NCBI GenBank assembly: GCA_037200385.1
Contig: JBBCGL010000001.1
Span: forward strand, 1,736,001 to 1,800,000
Length of the DNA stretch: 64,000 bases
Direction: 5' to 3'
From: Rhizomicrobium sp.
GTDB lineage: Bacteria > Pseudomonadota > Alphaproteobacteria > Micropepsales > Micropepsaceae
Shown here: positions 57,404 through 62,646 of the stretch, piece after piece
How positions within the stretch are numbered: the first letter of the stretch is position 1
How the letters are laid out: each line of letters starts with the position of its first letter
Translations under genes and position numbers: made by a program
Notes under the pieces: generated by a model
Databases searched by the model: none
Seen by the model: only the letters and a program-made list of their open reading frames with translations
What the model was told of the DNA's origin: nothing

Positions 57404-59443
57404 TCAAGCCGCGGCCTGGTGTTTCGCCACGACCTGGTCGGCCAGCTTGCCGGTCAGTTCGGCAAGGTGGTCGAACGCGGTCTCGAACGTGCCGACGCCC
57501 TGGGTCAGCGAGCGCAGCTCGATGATCAGGTCGGACAGCTCGGCCAACGGCATCTGCGCCTCCACCGTGTCCCAGCCCTTCCAGCCCTCACGCGCGTCGA
57601 AGCCCATGAGCTGGCCGCGCCGGCCGCTCACCACCGCATTGACCCTCGCCGTCGCCTCGCTCGGCACATGGATGCGCACATGCATGATGGATTCGAGGAG
57701 GACCGGGGCGCAGTTCGGCATGCCTTCGCTCATTGCGAGGCGGGCCGCCGTCTGGAACGCCGCGTCGGAGGAATCGACGGCATGGTACGAGCCGTCGGTC
57801 AGCGCCACCGCGACATCGACGACGGGAAAGCCCAGCGGGCCCTTGTGCAGATAGTCGACGACGCCTTTTTCAACCGAGGGGATCCATTGCCGCGGCACCA
57901 CGCCGCCCTTGATGCGATCTTCGAAGACGAAGCCGCCACCGCGCGGCAGGGGCTTGATCTCGATATGGACGTCGCCGAACTGGCCGTGGCCGCCGCTCTG
58001 CCGCCGGTGACGGCCATGCTGCGCGACGGCTTTGCGAATCGTCTCCTTGTAGGGCACGCGGGAGGCATGGACGTTGAGCCTGAGCCCGTATTTGCTCTGC
58101 AGCTTCTCGACCGCGACCTTGAGATGGATCTCGCCCTGGCCGAGCAGCGCCATCTCCTGCAGTTCGGCGTTCTGCTCGAAGACCAGCGACGGATCTTCCT
58201 CGCGCAGCTTGGCGATCGCGGCGGTGAGCTTGACCTCGTCCTTGCGGTCGGCCGCTTCGATCGCGAGGCGATAGACCGGCGTCAGCCGTTCGATCGCGAC
58301 GTTCGGAAGCTTCGTCTTGCCCGTCGCCAGCGTCTCGCCGGTCGCCACGCCCTCGAGCCGGCCGAGCGCGACGGTCTCGCCCGCCACCGCTTCGGCGAGC
58401 TTGGTCTGGGCCTCGCCCTTCAGCGCGAAGATGCCGCCGACGCGGGCTTCGTCGCCATCGCTCCGACGCAGCAGGGCGCCGTCCTTCAGCGTGCCGGCGA
58501 GCACCCGCGCCAGGCTGAGCTTGCCGCCATGGCTCGAATGGTAGGTCTTGAGAACCTGCACCACCGCATCGCCGTTCGGCGTTATTCCGAGGCGCTCGGC
58601 AGCGGCACCGACGGACGGGACTTCATGGCGCAGCGCCTTGAGCAGCCGGCGGATGCCGTTGTCGCCTTCCGCCGAGCCGATCAGCACCGGCACGACGAGG
58701 CCCTGCGCCAGTTCCTTGGCGAGGTCGGTGAAGACTTCCTCCTTCGGCGGCTCGATATCCGACAGGAGCTCCTCCATCAGGTGCTCGTCGTAATCGGCGA
58801 GCTTTTCCAGCATCGCGAAGCGCGCTTCCTTCTCGCCGTCCTTGTCCGCGATGTCGATCATCTCGCTGGGAGCGTGACTGCGGTAGATATAGGCGCGCTC
58901 CAGCGCGAGATCGACGAAACCGGAGACGACGTCGTCCTCCCAGATCGGGATCTGCCGCAGCAGAAGCGGCGCGCCGCTGGCATCCTGCAGCATGGTGAGC
59001 AGGGCGCGCAGCGAGCCGCTCGCCTTGTCGATCTTGTTGACGAACAGGAAATGCGGAATGCGCAGATCGGCGAGCCGCTTCAGATAGGGCTGCAGCATCT
59101 GCAGCTTGCCGGGCTCGGGCTCGCACACCACGATGGCGGCGTCCACGCCGGGCAGGACGTTCAGCGTGTCGGCGAGGAATTCGATCGAGCCGGGACAATC
59201 GAGGAAGGTGAAATTCTGCTCCATGTAGCGCGTCGTGGCGCAATTGACCTCGACGCTCATCAGCCGGGCGCGCGCTTCCGCGCTCCCATCTCCCACCGTG
59301 TTCTTCTGCGCGATCGCGCCTTTTCTCTGCACCGCGCCCGTGACGGAAAGGATGCTCTCCAGCAGCGTGGTCTTGCCGCTGCCATAGGGTCCCACCACGG
59401 CCACGGCGCGTGGTTCTCTGCCGCCTTTGTTTTCTCCAGACAT
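57404..59443 (-). CDS. EF-G-like translational GTPase (paralogue type)
   Basis: A 679-residue GTPase with the five-domain elongation factor G layout. G1 is GPYGSGKTT (from residue 18), G3 FLDCPGSIEF replaces the usual DTPGH, and G4 is NKID. Domain II follows, then domain III-V signatures such as GQGEIHLKVAVEKLQSKYG, GHGQFGDVHIEI and GRRGQLMGFD. It is slightly shorter than canonical FusA, and DCPGS in place of DTPGH marks the FusA2-like paralogue group, whose role (stress, ribosome recycling or other) is not settled. There is no ribosomal protein operon nearby, which also argues against the housekeeping copy. Confidence 0.9.
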   Translation of the reverse strand: MSGENKGGREPRAVAVVGPYGSGKTTLLESILSVTGAVQRKGAIAQKNTVGDGSAEARARLMSVEVNCATTRYMEQNFTFLDCPGSIEFLADTLNVLPGVDAAIVVCEPEPGKLQMLQPYLKRLADLRIPHFLFVNKIDKASGSLRALLTMLQDASGAPLLLRQIPIWEDDVVSGFVDLALERAYIYRSHAPSEMIDIADKDGEKEARFAMLEKLADYDEHLMEELLSDIEPPKEEVFTDLAKELAQGLVVPVLIGSAEGDNGIRRLLKALRHEVPSVGAAAERLGITPNGDAVVQVLKTYHSSHGGKLSLARVLAGTLKDGALLRRSDGDEARVGGIFALKGEAQTKLAEAVAGETVALGRLEGVATGETLATGKTKLPNVAIERLTPVYRLAIEAADRKDEVKLTAAIAKLREEDPSLVFEQNAELQEMALLGQGEIHLKVAVEKLQSKYGLRLNVHASRVPYKETIRKAVAQHGRHRRQSGGHGQFGDVHIEIKPLPRGGGFVFEDRIKGGVVPRQWIPSVEKGVVDYLHKGPLGFPVVDVAVALTDGSYHAVDSSDAAFQTAARLAMSEGMPNCAPVLLESIMHVRIHVPSEATARVNAVVSGRRGQLMGFDAREGWKGWDTVEAQMPLAELSDLIIELRSLTQGVGTFETAFDHLAELTGKLADQVVAKHQAAA

Positions 59444-59717: not shown

Positions 59718-61169
59718 TCAGGCCGGCGCGGGGTTCTCGTCATGCGCCAGGGGCACGCCGAGCTCGCCGAGGCGGTCGCGCAGGAAATCCATCGCGCGAT
59801 AGGCTTCGAGCGTGCCGATCTGGTCGCGCCGCTCGTCCTCGCCGACCGGCGCGGCGCAGTGCGGACAATCAGCGTGGCCGGCATAGAAGAACTGGTCGCA
59901 GCTCGCGCAGAGCAGCATGTCGCCCGCCGGCACGCCGGCACGCTTGGCGATCTCGTCCGCCGCCACGCGGTCCCAGGCTTCGGCGCCGGCCGGCGCCCCG
60001 TTCTGGTCCTCGAGGATCACGGCGAAGCGCCCCACCGCGAAGGGGAGCGGTGCCGCTTCCTCGACCTTCGCGACGCGCTCGCGCAGGCGATGCGTGGCGA
60101 GCCTGAGCGCGCGGTAGTGGCAGAACGGGTTGTTCCGCAGATCGCCGGTGACGGAATCGGCCTGCCAGCTGCAGCCGCTCGCGCAGGTGTCGCGGTGGTA
60201 GCAGACATTGCAGAAATTCGGCTGGTCCTCCGCCGCGCCGGATTTGCGCCGCCGCACGGGCTCACCGTCGCGCCAGATATCGGCGAAGGCGCGTTCGCGC
60301 ACATGGCCCATGCCGAATTTGCGCGTCTCCAGCGAAGGGCAACCCTTGATCGTTCCATCCGCCTCGATGCCGATGCCCGTCGCGGCGGCCTCGCAGCCCT
60401 TCCAATGGCGCTCTGCCTGCGCCAGGCCGCGGAAATGCCGTTCATGCGGTCCGAAATAGCCGATCGTGTTGCTCGCGGTGACCACCATGCCGCGCGCCTT
60501 GGCGCGCAGGCACAACTCGGACAGTTTGGGGATGACGCGGAGCAAATCATGCGGCTGCAGCAGCAGCCGTTCGTTCTCCACCGCGTTGCCCATGGGTACG
60601 GTGAGCATCGGCTGCCAATGCGTCACGCCCTCGGCGACGAGGATGTCGAACAATGCATCGAGCGCGCCGCGGGTCAGCGCATTCACCTGCGAATTGGCGC
60701 TCACGGCCAGCCCCAGCGCGCGCGCGTTGCGCACGACCGAAAGCGCCTGGCGGAACGAGCCGGGCACGCCGCGGATATCGTCGTGGATCTCCTCCGGGCC
60801 GTCGATCGAGACCCCGACGCCGTCCAGCCCCGCTTCCGCCGCGGCGGCGAGCTTCTCGCGCGTCAGCGCCCGCCCGCCGGTCTGGATATCGCAATAGATG
60901 TCGTGCCGCCGGATCGCGGCGACGATCTCCAGCCAGTCGCGCCGCAGATAGGCCTCGCCGCCGATCAGCGTGATCTCGCGCACCCCGGCTGCGGCGAGGT
61001 CGTCGACGAGCGCCAGCGCCTCGGCGGTCGACAATTCGTCGTCGCGCGGCGCACCGGCGCGGGAGCCGCAATGGCGGCATTTGAGGTTGCAGGACAGCGT
61101 GAATTCCCAGACGGCGTGGCGCGGCCTTCGCCGTTCGAGATCCTGTGCCGTTCGCCAGCGCGCAATCAC
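59718..61169 (-). CDS. Radical SAM/SPASM enzyme with a C-terminal zinc-ribbon-like extension
   Basis: A 483-residue peptide-modifying-type enzyme. The radical SAM cluster motif is C27-NLK-C31-RH-C34, with IGGEAYLRRDW as the GGE motif. The SPASM region (about residues 270-360) has Cys in GCPSLETRKFGMGHV, FCNVCYHRDTCASGCSW and NPFCHYRA, enough for one or two auxiliary [4Fe-4S] clusters. An extra 110 residues end in LCASCDQFF...CPHCAAP, a CxxC...CxxC zinc-ribbon. SPASM enzymes mostly modify ribosomal peptides. It starts 9 bp after the second of two small paralogous genes on the same strand, so those peptides are the prime substrate candidates. Confidence 0.93.
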   Translation of the reverse strand: MIARWRTAQDLERRRPRHAVWEFTLSCNLKCRHCGSRAGAPRDDELSTAEALALVDDLAAAGVREITLIGGEAYLRRDWLEIVAAIRRHDIYCDIQTGGRALTREKLAAAAEAGLDGVGVSIDGPEEIHDDIRGVPGSFRQALSVVRNARALGLAVSANSQVNALTRGALDALFDILVAEGVTHWQPMLTVPMGNAVENERLLLQPHDLLRVIPKLSELCLRAKARGMVVTASNTIGYFGPHERHFRGLAQAERHWKGCEAAATGIGIEADGTIKGCPSLETRKFGMGHVRERAFADIWRDGEPVRRRKSGAAEDQPNFCNVCYHRDTCASGCSWQADSVTGDLRNNPFCHYRALRLATHRLRERVAKVEEAAPLPFAVGRFAVILEDQNGAPAGAEAWDRVAADEIAKRAGVPAGDMLLCASCDQFFYAGHADCPHCAAPVGEDERRDQIGTLEAYRAMDFLRDRLGELGVPLAHDENPAPA

Positions 61170-61178
61170 GACCGGTGT

Positions 61179-61352
61179 TTATTTCCCGCGTTCGAGCTTG
61201 GCGATCTCGCCCCGCAGCACTTCCAGCGCACTGCGCACGTCGCCATACTCGGCGAGGTATTTTTCGGCGGCCTTCGCCACGGCTTTCATCGCTCCGAGAT
61301 CGCCCGATGCGACCGCCTGCTGGATCGCAGGGCCGTAAGGTTCAACCGACAT
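61179..61352 (-). CDS. Small paralogous peptide 1, candidate rSAM substrate
   Basis: A 57-residue peptide, MSVEPYGPAIQQAV.. to ..EIAKLERGK. ATG 61352 is preceded by AAGGATAGGTG, which overlaps the end of the gene before it. It shares with its two paralogues the pattern YGPAI-QAVASG-L--MK--A-AAEK-L---GDV--AL--L--EIAKLE. From memory this resembles the DUF1843 family, whose function is unknown. It is probably helical, has no Cys and no leader-type Gly-Gly. It lies 7 bp after peptide 2 and 9 bp before the radical SAM gene. Confidence 0.88.
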   Translation of the reverse strand: MSVEPYGPAIQQAVASGDLGAMKAVAKAAEKYLAEYGDVRSALEVLRGEIAKLERGK

Positions 61353-61359
61353 GCCGCAC

Positions 61360-61530
61360 CTATCCTTTGCGTTCGAGCTTGGCGATCTCGATCTTGAGCA
61401 GTTCGAGGGCGGATCGCACATCGCCGTATTCGGCAAGGTGCTTCTCCGCCGCCTTCGCCACCGCCTTCATGTTCTTGAGATTGCCCGAAGCGACCGCCTG
61501 ATGAATCGCAGGCCCATATGCGAGGATCAT
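61360..61530 (-). CDS. Small paralogous peptide 2, candidate rSAM substrate
   Basis: A 56-residue peptide, MILAYGPAIHQAV.. to ..KLERKG. GGGAGG lies 6 nt before ATG 61530. It is about 75 per cent identical to peptide 1 by eye, with the invariant YGPAI near the N-terminus and GDVRSAL in the second half. It is the first gene of the tight peptide 2 / peptide 1 / radical SAM operon. The AT-rich stretch upstream (61531-61691) should hold its promoter. Confidence 0.88.
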   Translation of the reverse strand: MILAYGPAIHQAVASGNLKNMKAVAKAAEKHLAEYGDVRSALELLKIEIAKLERKG

Positions 61531-61691
61531 GTCCGCCTCCCAACCAGATGACGCACAATAATATGTCAGTATTTATATGCACTATCAAGTCAATAATTTA
61601 CGAATACTTGTCAGTGATTTCACGAAATCCGGAAGAAATAACCATATAACTTTATCAATGCTTCGGAAATCGACTTCAGCCGGTTGTGCGG
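61531..61691 (-). promoter_or_regulatory. AT-rich promoter region of the peptide/rSAM operon
   Basis: 161 bp, unusually AT-rich for this sequence (roughly 61555-61670). It contains a direct repeat TGTCAGT (about 61566 and 61610) and an inverted pair AGTATT / AATACT. No reading frame of note. A promoter and regulator site for peptide 2, peptide 1 and the radical SAM gene is likely. Confidence 0.5.
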
Positions 61692-61862
61692 CTACGCCTT
61701 GTGCTCGAGCTTGGCGATCTCCGCCTTCAGCATCTGGAGCGCGGCGCTGACGTCGCCATGCGCTTCGAGATGCTTCTCCGCGGCCGTCGCCAGCGATTTC
61801 ATCGTCTTGAGATTGCCCGAAGCGACTGCCTGCTGGATCGCCGGGCCGTAAGGCTTGACCAT
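61692..61862 (-). CDS. Small paralogous peptide 3, candidate rSAM substrate
   Basis: A 56-residue peptide, MVKPYGPAIQQAV.. to ..KLEHKA. AGGGAGAGG precedes ATG 61862. It is more divergent than peptides 1 and 2 in the middle (MKSLATAAEKHLEAHGDVSAAL) but keeps YGPAI, QAVASG and EIAKLE. It is separated from peptide 2 by its own 161-bp AT-rich gap, so it may be transcribed separately. A frame open further upstream to 62048 is not supported because it runs through the AT-rich control region. Confidence 0.86.
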   Translation of the reverse strand: MVKPYGPAIQQAVASGNLKTMKSLATAAEKHLEAHGDVSAALQMLKAEIAKLEHKA

Positions 61863-61953
61863 ATGCCTCTCCCTGTTAAACGCCCCCTGAGGCTCGCAGC
61901 ATTCACCGAATACATCAATATTGGTAGAATAATTATTTGGTATTCGGCCGTCT

Positions 61954-61977
61954 ATATCACCACAACTTGGGTGATAT
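61954..61977. promoter_or_regulatory. Perfect dyad ATATCACC-N8-GGTGATAT
   Basis: An 8-bp perfect inverted repeat in the AT-rich 133-bp region between peptide 3 (minus) and the methyltransferase (plus). It ends 18 bp before the methyltransferase ATG. It is well placed as an operator controlling both directions, or as a leader hairpin of the methyltransferase mRNA. Confidence 0.55.
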
Positions 61978-61995
61978 CTGAGGAATACAATATTC

Positions 61996-62646
61996 ATGAC
62001 GGCCCGCTCATCGATCGCCGGCGATCGCCGAAGCCTGTACCGCGACATCCGCCGTTATCACGCCGGCGAGATCGCGCTTTCCAGCCGCGAAATCGAACGA
62101 CGCATCTTCGGAACCGGGGCAGCGTTGGCGGAGGACGGCCTGGGCGAGACGGTCCAGCGGCTGGGGCTGCACAAATTCGGCGAGGATCCGCCCAACTACG
62201 ACGTGGTGCGTGCCGCGCTCGGCCTTCTGCCCCGTCCCGGCATGACACTGCTCGATGTCGGCTGCGGCCGGGGACGCGTGCTGCTCTACGCCGCGCTGCT
62301 GGGCGCACCGCGCGTGACGGGGATCGAGATCCTCGAAGCGCGGGCGGCGCTGGCGCGCATGGCGGCGTCGGCGCATCTGCCGCCAGGCGCCGCGACGATC
62401 CGGACCGGCGACGCGCTGAAGCTGCCCTGGCCCGCCGCCGAGGCCCTGATCGTCATGAATCCGTTCTTTCCCTCCGCTTATCGCCATTTGCGGACACGGC
62501 TTCTCGACTATGCGGCGGCTAGGCAGACGGTCGTCATCAGCGTCTCCACCCTGCGCGACCGCCTTGCCGCCGACCGGCGGTTCCGCCAGATCGGCGCGGC
62601 GGAGGTCGGCTGGATCGCGCTCGGTGCCTTCGAAGTCCGCCATTGA
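61996..62646 (+). CDS. Class I SAM-dependent methyltransferase
   Basis: A 216-residue methyltransferase. MTLLDVGCGRGRVLLYAALLG is SAM motif I, VTGIEILEARAALA motif II, and ALIVMNPFFPSAYRHL has an NPF element like that of N-methyltransferases acting on amino groups of proteins or bases (NPPF/NPPY type). The N-terminal 60 residues are helical and basic. GAGGAA lies 10 nt before ATG 61996. It is divergent from the small peptide genes with a shared AT-rich control region, so it may modify the same peptides; this is inference. Confidence 0.85.
   Translation: MTARSSIAGDRRSLYRDIRRYHAGEIALSSREIERRIFGTGAALAEDGLGETVQRLGLHKFGEDPPNYDVVRAALGLLPRPGMTLLDVGCGRGRVLLYAALLGAPRVTGIEILEARAALARMAASAHLPPGAATIRTGDALKLPWPAAEALIVMNPFFPSAYRHLRTRLLDYAAARQTVVISVSTLRDRLAADRRFRQIGAAEVGWIALGAFEVRH

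What the first reader, a model, noticed from the sequence alone, without database searches (positions are those of the whole stretch)
59718..62646. Possible new RiPP-like pathway: three paralogous 56-57-residue peptides with a radical SAM/SPASM enzyme and a methyltransferase
Seen: three small genes share YGPAI, QAVASG and EIAKLE. Two sit 7 and 9 bp apart in one operon with a SPASM-type radical SAM enzyme; a third and a divergent methyltransferase share AT-rich control DNA with a perfect dyad. Known: SPASM enzymes usually modify ribosomally made peptides, and multi-copy small genes beside them are typical precursors. Inferred: the peptides are substrates. They have no Cys, so thioether chemistry is unlikely. 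The invariant Tyr-Gly near the N-terminus is notable because splicease-type radical SAM enzymes cut at X-Tyr-Gly, but that link is speculative. I recall the peptides as DUF1843-like, a family without known function.
Basis: partly seen in the sequence, partly recalled or inferred. Interest (0 to 1): 0.88.

Follow-up and report, generated by a model that had tools for sequence, protein, structure and literature searches.

The report
Predicted tyrosine-splicing system on small proteins
A bacterial operon pairs three tiny helical proteins with a radical enzyme that, judging by its relatives, probably cuts most of one tyrosine out of their backbone and leaves a reactive amino acid behind, which would give a first biochemical role to a protein family of unknown function.

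Summary
The three peptides are Pfam DUF1843. The enzyme is an intact SPASM radical-SAM protein; its closest curated families are TIGR03913 ("GDL motif peptide-associated maturase") and TIGR04103 (nif11 maturase 3), but it falls below both cut-offs. The pairing is already named by NCBI; this is a divergent variant.

In 59 loci (window included) all 161 DUF1843 domains keep one tyrosine, mostly X-Tyr-Gly/Ala. Enzyme relatives beside unrelated substrates (cyanobacterial Nif11-like cores, mostly myxobacterial zinc-ribbon proteins) also have X-Tyr-Gly. All 10 sampled genomes whose DUF1843 match includes the tyrosine end carry the enzyme nearby.

Unexpected: every multi-copy locus (51 of 51; 17 of 17 with enzymes under 80% identity) has both a Pro-Tyr-Gly and a non-Pro-Tyr copy; none of 8 single-copy loci is Pro-Tyr-Gly. 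A methyltransferase recurs in 8 of 25 representative loci.

Most likely: tyramine excision at X-Tyr-Gly, confidence 0.65. No activity was tested. Scott et al. 2022, which may cover such systems, was not held.

The parts
59718..61169 (-). radical SAM/SPASM enzyme, 483 aa (GTG start); CxxxCxxC at C27/C31/C34, SPASM Cys 259, 277, 320, 323, 329, 333, 350; C-terminal domain with a CxxC-x10-CPHC zinc-ribbon-like motif and a long helix
61179..61352 (-). DUF1843 protein 1, 57 aa, Pro-Tyr-Gly copy (MSVEPYGPAI...)
   Evidence: PF08898 E 1.9e-21
61360..61530 (-). DUF1843 protein 2, 56 aa, Ala-Tyr-Gly copy (MILAYGPAI...), the only non-proline copy of the locus and the predicted first choice as splicing substrate (inference)
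   Evidence: PF08898 E 1.4e-21; pairing rule; three-helix model with Tyr5 at the start of helix 1
61692..61862 (-). DUF1843 protein 3, 56 aa, Pro-Tyr-Gly copy (MVKPYGPAI...), own upstream region
   Evidence: PF08898 E 6.3e-23
61996..62646 (+). divergent class I SAM methyltransferase, 216 aa, same subfamily as methyltransferases in 12 other DUF1843 loci
   Evidence: Methyltransf_25 7.7e-08; HMM of locus methyltransferases; neighbour clustering 8 of 25 loci; PADLOC mad2 methyltransferase domain 9.8e-18
61863..61995 (.). AT-rich divergent control region between DUF1843 protein 3 and the methyltransferase
   Evidence: sigma-70-like match 61960-61932 on the minus strand (3 found in the 1.1 kb scanned, 0.8 expected from shuffles)
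61954..61977 (.). perfect dyad ATATCACC-8-GGTGATAT, operator-like (inference), overlaps the predicted -35 box of protein 3
61531..61691 (.). AT-rich region upstream of the protein 2 - protein 1 - rSAM operon, with a promoter-like match at 61588-61560

Best explanation
The locus makes small helical DUF1843 proteins and a radical SAM/SPASM enzyme that modifies them at the single invariant tyrosine of X-Tyr-Gly near the N-terminus. [quoted passage not shown] Here X is Ala in protein 2 and Pro in proteins 1 and 3. The DUF1843 helix bundle would act as a C-terminal recognition domain (a follower in place of a leader), docked by the enzyme's own C-terminal zinc-ribbon/helix domain in place of the separate small partner of the cyanobacterial systems. 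Pro-Tyr-Gly and non-Pro copies seem to have distinct and jointly needed roles. The methyltransferase would act on the protein or its ketoamide. Shown by computation: gene content, families, co-occurrence, conserved Tyr, pairing rule. Inferred: that the enzyme acts on these proteins, the chemistry, the docking, and the biological role (perhaps a reactive protease-inhibitor-like protein).
For: (1) Nearest characterised chemistry: after TIGR03913, the enzyme's next NCBIfam match is TIGR04103 at 4.8e-113; the next is 5.2e-41, and PqqE is at 1.9e-28. Seven relatives tested match only these two families at E<=1e-100. (2) Tyr is present in 161 of 161 domain hits and 64 of 64 clusters, followed by Gly in 45, Ala in 16, Met in 2, Asp in 1. 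A control profile without the motif columns gave 159 hits, all with a Tyr in the 11 residues around the expected place. (3) All 10 cyanobacterial loci read whose enzyme passes the TIGR04103 cut-off have Nif11-like precursors with X-Tyr-Gly in the core. Mostly myxobacterial relatives sit by zinc-ribbon proteins with 86 YG where shuffles give a mean of 13.1, maximum 26. (4) A Bradyrhizobium DUF1843-like protein carries PIRPLYGVII; splice tags in PMC10533398 read PIRPLYGLPI and PIRPGYGLPI (passages). (5) The 10 sampled genomes with a DUF1843 match that includes the tyrosine end all have the enzyme within about 2 kb. (6) In the tree the window enzyme lies in a 16-row clade (98%) all linked to DUF1843, and the nif11 rows lie elsewhere inside the same family.
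Against: No activity data. The enzyme misses both curated cut-offs and has a long branch, 1.29, with four departures from glycines kept in 57-59 of 59 relatives: G262A, G318N, G345R, G361R. X is Pro in two of the three peptides and in 53 of 161 domains, and none of the Nif11-like X-Tyr-Gly motifs read here has Pro, though 6 of 61 in the zinc-ribbon proteins do. A quarter of DUF1843 clusters have Ala, not Gly, after Tyr, so the motif is not strictly X-Tyr-Gly. In the cited paper the two LYG tags, like most of the short tags, were not accepted at the FtsZ sites tried, so the string alone does not make a substrate. The small partner gene of the cyanobacterial loci was not found in any DUF1843 locus. 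DUF1843 and Nif11-like precursors are not detectably related. An invariant Tyr could serve structure, and the control profile was built from the same hits. That PlpX belongs to TIGR04103 is recalled through its InterPro number, IPR026482, not shown by a call.
Confidence: 0.65

Rival explanations
1. The enzyme modifies the invariant Tyr of the DUF1843 proteins, but by other radical chemistry (crosslink, C-alpha/C-beta cleavage without rejoining, epimerisation or beta-modification).
For: Tyr is the only invariant residue. The enzyme differs from the curated nif11 maturases and carries a C-terminal domain they lack. The residue after Tyr is Ala in 16 of 64 clusters, and before it Pro in 22 of 64.
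Against: The closest well-studied family is the nif11 maturase 3 group, far ahead of the PqqE, mycofactocin and sactipeptide families listed. The X-Tyr-Gly context is shared with that group's substrates.
Confidence: 0.22
2. DUF1843 proteins are self-assembling scaffold proteins (the published guess from repeated paralogs in operons), and the enzyme is incidental or tunes assembly.
For: PMC10994174 chose the family for this reason, after Beeby 2009 (passages).
Against: The same paper judged its protein likely monomeric and saw no higher oligomers (passages). The enzyme is present in 10 of 10 sampled genomes with the tyrosine end of DUF1843.
Confidence: 0.06
3. The operon belongs to the XYE class, as PMC12114271 assumed for the Chromobacterium relative.
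For: That paper's statement (passages).
Against: No XYE maturase family appears among the best 25 NCBIfam matches shown for the enzyme (81 matched in all). The one invariant residue is a Tyr, mostly in X-Tyr-Gly/Ala near the N-terminus of the domain.
Confidence: 0.03
4. The enzyme acts on something other than these proteins, and adjacency is chance or shared regulation.
For: No direct test was possible.
Against: Operon spacing of 7 and 9 bp, and co-occurrence in several phyla.
Confidence: 0.04

Closest known systems
[quoted passage not shown]
   Same: DUF1843 proteins beside an rSAM/SPASM enzyme with a C-terminal zinc-ribbon domain; mixed Pro-Tyr-Gly and Leu/Met-Tyr copies
   Different: the window enzyme is below the family cut-off (482.7 against 591.75 bits), no DUF1842 fusion, all copies short, non-Pro copy is Ala-Tyr-Gly, divergent methyltransferase present
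TIGR04103 nif11-class peptide radical SAM maturase 3 / PlpXY splicease (spliceotides)
   Same: same enzyme superfamily, X-Tyr-Gly in the substrate
   Different: Nif11-like leader in place of DUF1843; separate small partner gene in place of a fused C-terminal domain; 377.9 bits against a cut-off of 725
Aureibacter tunicatorum plasmid pAT1 cassette (three DUF1843, rSAM, class I methyltransferase; L022)
   Same: same gene set as the window
   Different: all five genes in one direction; Bacteroidota; enzyme 39% identical
Bradyrhizobium sp. LTSP885 (L098) and Rhodospirillales MAG (L076) loci
   Same: divergent methyltransferase, then DUF1843, then rSAM
   Different: a single DUF1843 copy each (Ala-Tyr-Gly and Met-Tyr-Gly); the L076 enzyme lacks the zinc-ribbon tail

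Membership tests
Pfam PF08898 DUF1843 | profile score over the curated cut-off of 23.3 bits | tested here: met
   76.8, 77.3 and 81.6 bits for the three peptides
radical SAM/SPASM enzymes | CxxxCxxC plus SPASM cysteines | tested here: met
   Pfam matches over cut-off; the ten cysteines conserved among 59 relatives are kept
TIGR03913 GDL maturase (equivalog) | score over 591.75 bits | tested here: not met
   482.7 bits
TIGR04103 nif11 maturase 3 (PlpX-type) | score over 725 bits | tested here: not met
   377.9 bits
PlpXY spliceotide system | Nif11 or NHLP leader precursor beside the enzyme | tested here: not met
   the small proteins beside the enzyme are DUF1843; profile comparison with Nif11-like precursors gives probability 4.5%
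PlpXY spliceotide system | separate PlpY-like partner gene | tested here: not met
   the profile of the small gene found downstream of cyanobacterial enzymes (called PlpY-like by place and size; 8 of the 10 loci it finds were its seeds) finds no DUF1843 locus, the window included, at E<0.1; the true PlpY sequence was not in hand
spliceases by function | X-Tyr-Gly in the substrate | tested here: met
   3 of 3 window peptides; in the family Tyr in 161 of 161 domains, Gly or Ala next in 61 of 64 clusters
spliceases by function | excision of tyramine from X-Tyr-Gly | not testable with these tools
   needs co-expression and mass spectrometry

The most novel reading that the evidence does not exclude
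DUF1843 loci are not natural-product clusters but a paired protein-splicing system: one splicease-type enzyme serves two obligate classes of small helical proteins, one with Pro-Tyr-Gly and one with mostly aliphatic-Tyr-(Gly/Ala). The two spliced, or spliced and unspliced, forms work together as an intracellular electrophilic protein. The pairing has been kept, or has arisen again, through several separate duplications.
Probability: 0.3. Interest if true: 0.88.

Novelty: new variant of a known kind. Interest (0 to 1): 0.72.

Why it matters
DUF1843 has no known function, though relatives are listed among strongly up-regulated transcripts in a B. thailandensis growth-phase study (PMC12322963, passages) and among quorum-sensing-dependent genes in Chromobacterium (PMC12114271, passages). 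[quoted passage not shown] The Pro/non-Pro pairing rule gives a precise hypothesis about why each system needs two kinds of substrate. Both points can be tested by co-expression and mass spectrometry in E. coli.

Tried and rejected
Self-assembly scaffold, XYE class and chance adjacency were weighed and put below the splicease reading (see rivals). A hidden homology between DUF1843 and Nif11-like precursors was tested and not found (only the Tyr-Gly letters align, probability 4.5%). A fold match for the DUF1843 model was not found (9 matches, best E 4.5). A PlpY-like stretch in the enzyme tail was sought; the best of 26 weak matches had E 2.3. The zinc-ribbon profile built from substrate ribbons finds 50 of 58 DUF1843-linked enzymes and 0 of 55 others, but not the window's own ribbon, which rests on the alignment; a short ribbon may also arise by convergence. 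The anti-phage library gave viperin matches to the enzyme (5.9e-13 at best) and the mad2 methyltransferase domain to the methyltransferase; a defence role is not argued. Pfam, NCBIfam and PADLOC were searched; PHROGs was not.

Exceptions to tell: of 161 domains one reads VYD, one YYG and four MYM. Sphingomonas ERG5 (L072) has a marginal DUF1843-like protein (E 0.0077) with VYYRP. Nine genomes gave partial PF08898 matches (profile 13-50, 14-50 or 6-51, so without the tyrosine end) inside ORFs of about 740-775 codons: 3, 2, 4. Six of the nine pass Pfam's cut-off. They were left out of the co-occurrence count, and the enzyme was not found in any of these nine genomes (E<=1e-20, E<=1e-60). Counted with them, 10 of 19 genomes with any PF08898 match have the enzyme.

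In one search the enzyme was sought only in nine genomes that had a PF08898 match, not in all of the samples. The domain tree has 45 columns and few firm forks, so its figure of at least 14 Pro/non-Pro switches is rough. Relatedness is only partly removed in the shuffles. The 25 representative loci were picked by hand.
Full report
WHAT IS THERE. The window end holds three short minus-strand genes (61179-61352, 61360-61530, 61692-61862), a 483-aa rSAM gene (59718-61169, minus) and a divergent methyltransferase gene (61996-62646, plus). The dyad is unique in the 5.0 Mb genome with up to 2 mismatches and overlaps a promoter-like match; promoter matches are weak evidence. All three peptides are DUF1843, and the genome has no further copy at E<=0.001. 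Of 59 other genomes of the same genus none has a DUF1843 match, and 4 of 385 genomes of the class do, the window's own included, which suggests gain by transfer or wide loss (inference).

COMPANY ACROSS BACTERIA. In whole-genome samples, a DUF1843 match that includes the tyrosine end (profile start 1-3) was found in 10 genomes: G000, G091, G220, G317, G551, G754, G918, G972, G805, G1377. All 10 have the enzyme within about 2 kb. Nine further genomes with partial matches inside long ORFs were set aside (see Tried and rejected). In Pseudomonadaceae DUF1843 with its tyrosine end and the enzyme pick the same 3 of 198 genomes. In the Bacteroidota sample (phylum of G805) DUF1843 with its tyrosine end is in 2 of 267 and the enzyme at over 500 bits in the same 2, while four more genomes hold only matches of 221-234 bits. 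A scan of named genomes kept 80 loci, from Pseudomonadota, Bacteroidota, Acidobacteriota, Myxococcota, Cyanobacteriota and other phyla (phyla as listed). With the window and plasmid and genome loci added, 59 loci hold DUF1843.

THE TYROSINE. Over 161 domain hits in 153 ORFs, Tyr is present in 161 of 161; in 64 clusters at 70% identity it is the only invariant column. The residue before it is Leu in 32 and Pro in 22; the residue after it is Gly in 45, Ala in 16, Met in 2, Asp in 1. A profile built without the motif columns, from the same hits, found 159 places, all with a Tyr in the 11 residues around the expected place; one new marginal hit has VYYRP.

LINK TO SPLICEASES. Splicing of X-Tyr-Gly by PlpXY, with loss of C8H9NO (-135.0757 Da), is described in PMC10533398 (passages) and PMC11002830 (passages); the latter puts PlpX in IPR026482, which I recall to be TIGR04103. 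Of 146 genomes sampled from the phylum of a Richelia locus, 9 have an enzyme over the TIGR04103 cut-off. Those 9 loci and a Nostoc plasmid (over the cut-off) all have Nif11-like precursors with X-Tyr-Gly after the GG site and a small downstream gene that I call PlpY-like by place and size; 8 of the 10 were the seeds of its profile. Among enzyme loci without DUF1843, 24 of 53 have zinc-ribbon proteins nearby with 86 YG in 36 ORFs; shuffles give a mean of 13.1 and a maximum of 26 in 2000. These ORFs were chosen by a ribbon pattern and by distance, not by YG, and most are myxobacterial. Three scaffolds without detected kinship thus carry X-Tyr-Gly (or Ala) next to one enzyme family; for the ribbon proteins kinship with the others was not tested. 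In the tree the window enzyme falls in a 16-row clade (98%), all DUF1843-linked; other DUF1843-linked enzymes (L022, L068, L070, L109 of Bacteroidota, L026, L076) lie outside it, and the nif11 rows lie inside the wider family. The tree is the quick kind, with a distant outgroup and a long window branch.

A MOVING DOCKING MODULE (inference). A profile made only from substrate ribbons finds the tail of 50 of 58 DUF1843-linked enzymes, 0 of 55 other enzymes and 0 reversed sequences; it misses the window's own ribbon, which is aligned with the others. In a Sulfitobacter MAG a ribbon is a separate 72-aa protein (L082), and in Tropicibacter a ribbon-like stretch stands at the enzyme's N-terminus (L023). 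The enzyme may carry its docking module where others put it on the substrate.

THE PAIRING RULE. Of 59 loci, 51 have two or more copies (domain hits), and all 51 have at least one Pro-Tyr-Gly and at least one non-Pro copy. The 8 single-copy loci have no Pro copy. All 53 Pro copies are Pro-Tyr-Gly. With enzymes under 80% identity 17 of 17 multi-copy loci obey it (0 of 20000 shuffles reach this); under 70%, 11 of 11 (43 of 20000); under 65%, 9 of 9 (234 of 20000). A genome not in that set, G1377, also has one of each. Copies group by lineage in some loci (window, Saprospiraceae L063, flavobacteria, Bryobacterales L062) and by kind in others (Pseudomonas, Chromobacterium, Burkholderia); of 63 copies, 23 have a copy of the other kind as nearest, 12 of them in the same locus; the tree needs at least 14 switches of kind and has few columns. 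The window obeys the rule with Ala-Tyr-Gly once and Pro-Tyr-Gly twice. I know of no explanation; Pro copies may be unspliceable partners or give a second product.

THE METHYLTRANSFERASE. Clustering of neighbours (ORFs of 90 codons or more within 5 kb) in 25 representative loci gives one widely shared extra gene, the methyltransferase, in 8 of 25. Apart from DUF1842/DUF1843 no other cluster spans more than 3 loci: a LysR-type regulator 3, an ABC-transporter ATPase 2, and several made of antisense or unidentified ORFs. A profile (9 seeds) finds the methyltransferase in 13 of the 59 DUF1843 loci: the window, L098, L076 and all ten Bacteroidota loci. It is divergent in the window, L098 and L076 and downstream of the enzyme in Bacteroidota. 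Two of three Bacteroidota copies tested pass the Pfam DOT1 cut-off; all six copies tested match the methyltransferase domain of PADLOC mad2. No transporter or protease was seen in more than 2 of the 25 loci, but clusters were named from few rows only.

LITERATURE. DUF1843 occurs in 3 held papers. PMC10994174 (passages): a DUF1842-DUF1843 protein made in E. coli, likely monomeric, with a proteolytic cut perhaps directly before the DUF1843 domain, where the Tyr motif lies in the fused relatives; the passages seen mention no enzyme. PMC12114271 (passages): co-expression with a GDL maturase. PMC12322963 (passages): DUF1842/1843 genes among strongly up-regulated transcripts. PMC11117315 (passages) states that spliceotide products are protease inhibitors, citing Scott 2022. 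Searches for DUF1843, GDL motif/TIGR03913, splicease/spliceotide, PlpX, DUF1842 and tyramine splicing listed no paper that joins DUF1843 to splicing; one search listed 20 of 24 papers and 40 of 64. Morinaka 2018, Scott 2022, Richter 2024 and Haft and Basu 2011 are not held, so prior report cannot be excluded.

VERDICT. A divergent example of a named but uncharacterised kind of locus, most likely a splicease-type modification system on small proteins, with a strong and unexplained pairing of substrate kinds.

Noticed in passing
window 57404-59443 (minus): A second-type elongation factor G-like protein (NF009379 over cut-off) lies just downstream of the rSAM gene; no link to the system seen.
   Followed up: no
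L137:7597-8037: Bradyrhizobium genome G804 has a second enzyme copy beside a DUF1843-like protein (E 2.1e-05) with PIRPLYGVII, nearly the string of cyanobacterial X-Tyr-Gly cores.
   Followed up: partly
L055:5476-5916, L059:5452-5904, L049:5091-5834: Undibacterium and Lysobacter loci carry two or three DUF1843 motifs (LYA, LYG, MYA, PYG) in one ORF.
   Followed up: partly
L072:5444-5968: Sphingomonas ERG5: marginal DUF1843-like protein overlapping the enzyme gene by a few bases, with VYYRP in place of X-Tyr-Gly.
   Followed up: no
L023 (Tropicibacter oceani plasmid): Relative of the enzyme among two further radical SAM genes, a trypsin-like peptidase and an M23 peptidase, without DUF1843.
   Followed up: no
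L067-L111, for example L077:7267-9495: Zinc-ribbon proteins, mostly myxobacterial, with repeated X-Tyr-Gly motifs beside enzyme relatives; six matches of the enzyme family in one Nannocystis genome (G802).
   Followed up: partly
window 61996-62646: The methyltransferase matches the methyltransferase domain of the PADLOC protein mad2 (62.2 bits) better than its best Pfam family (33.4 bits).
   Followed up: partly
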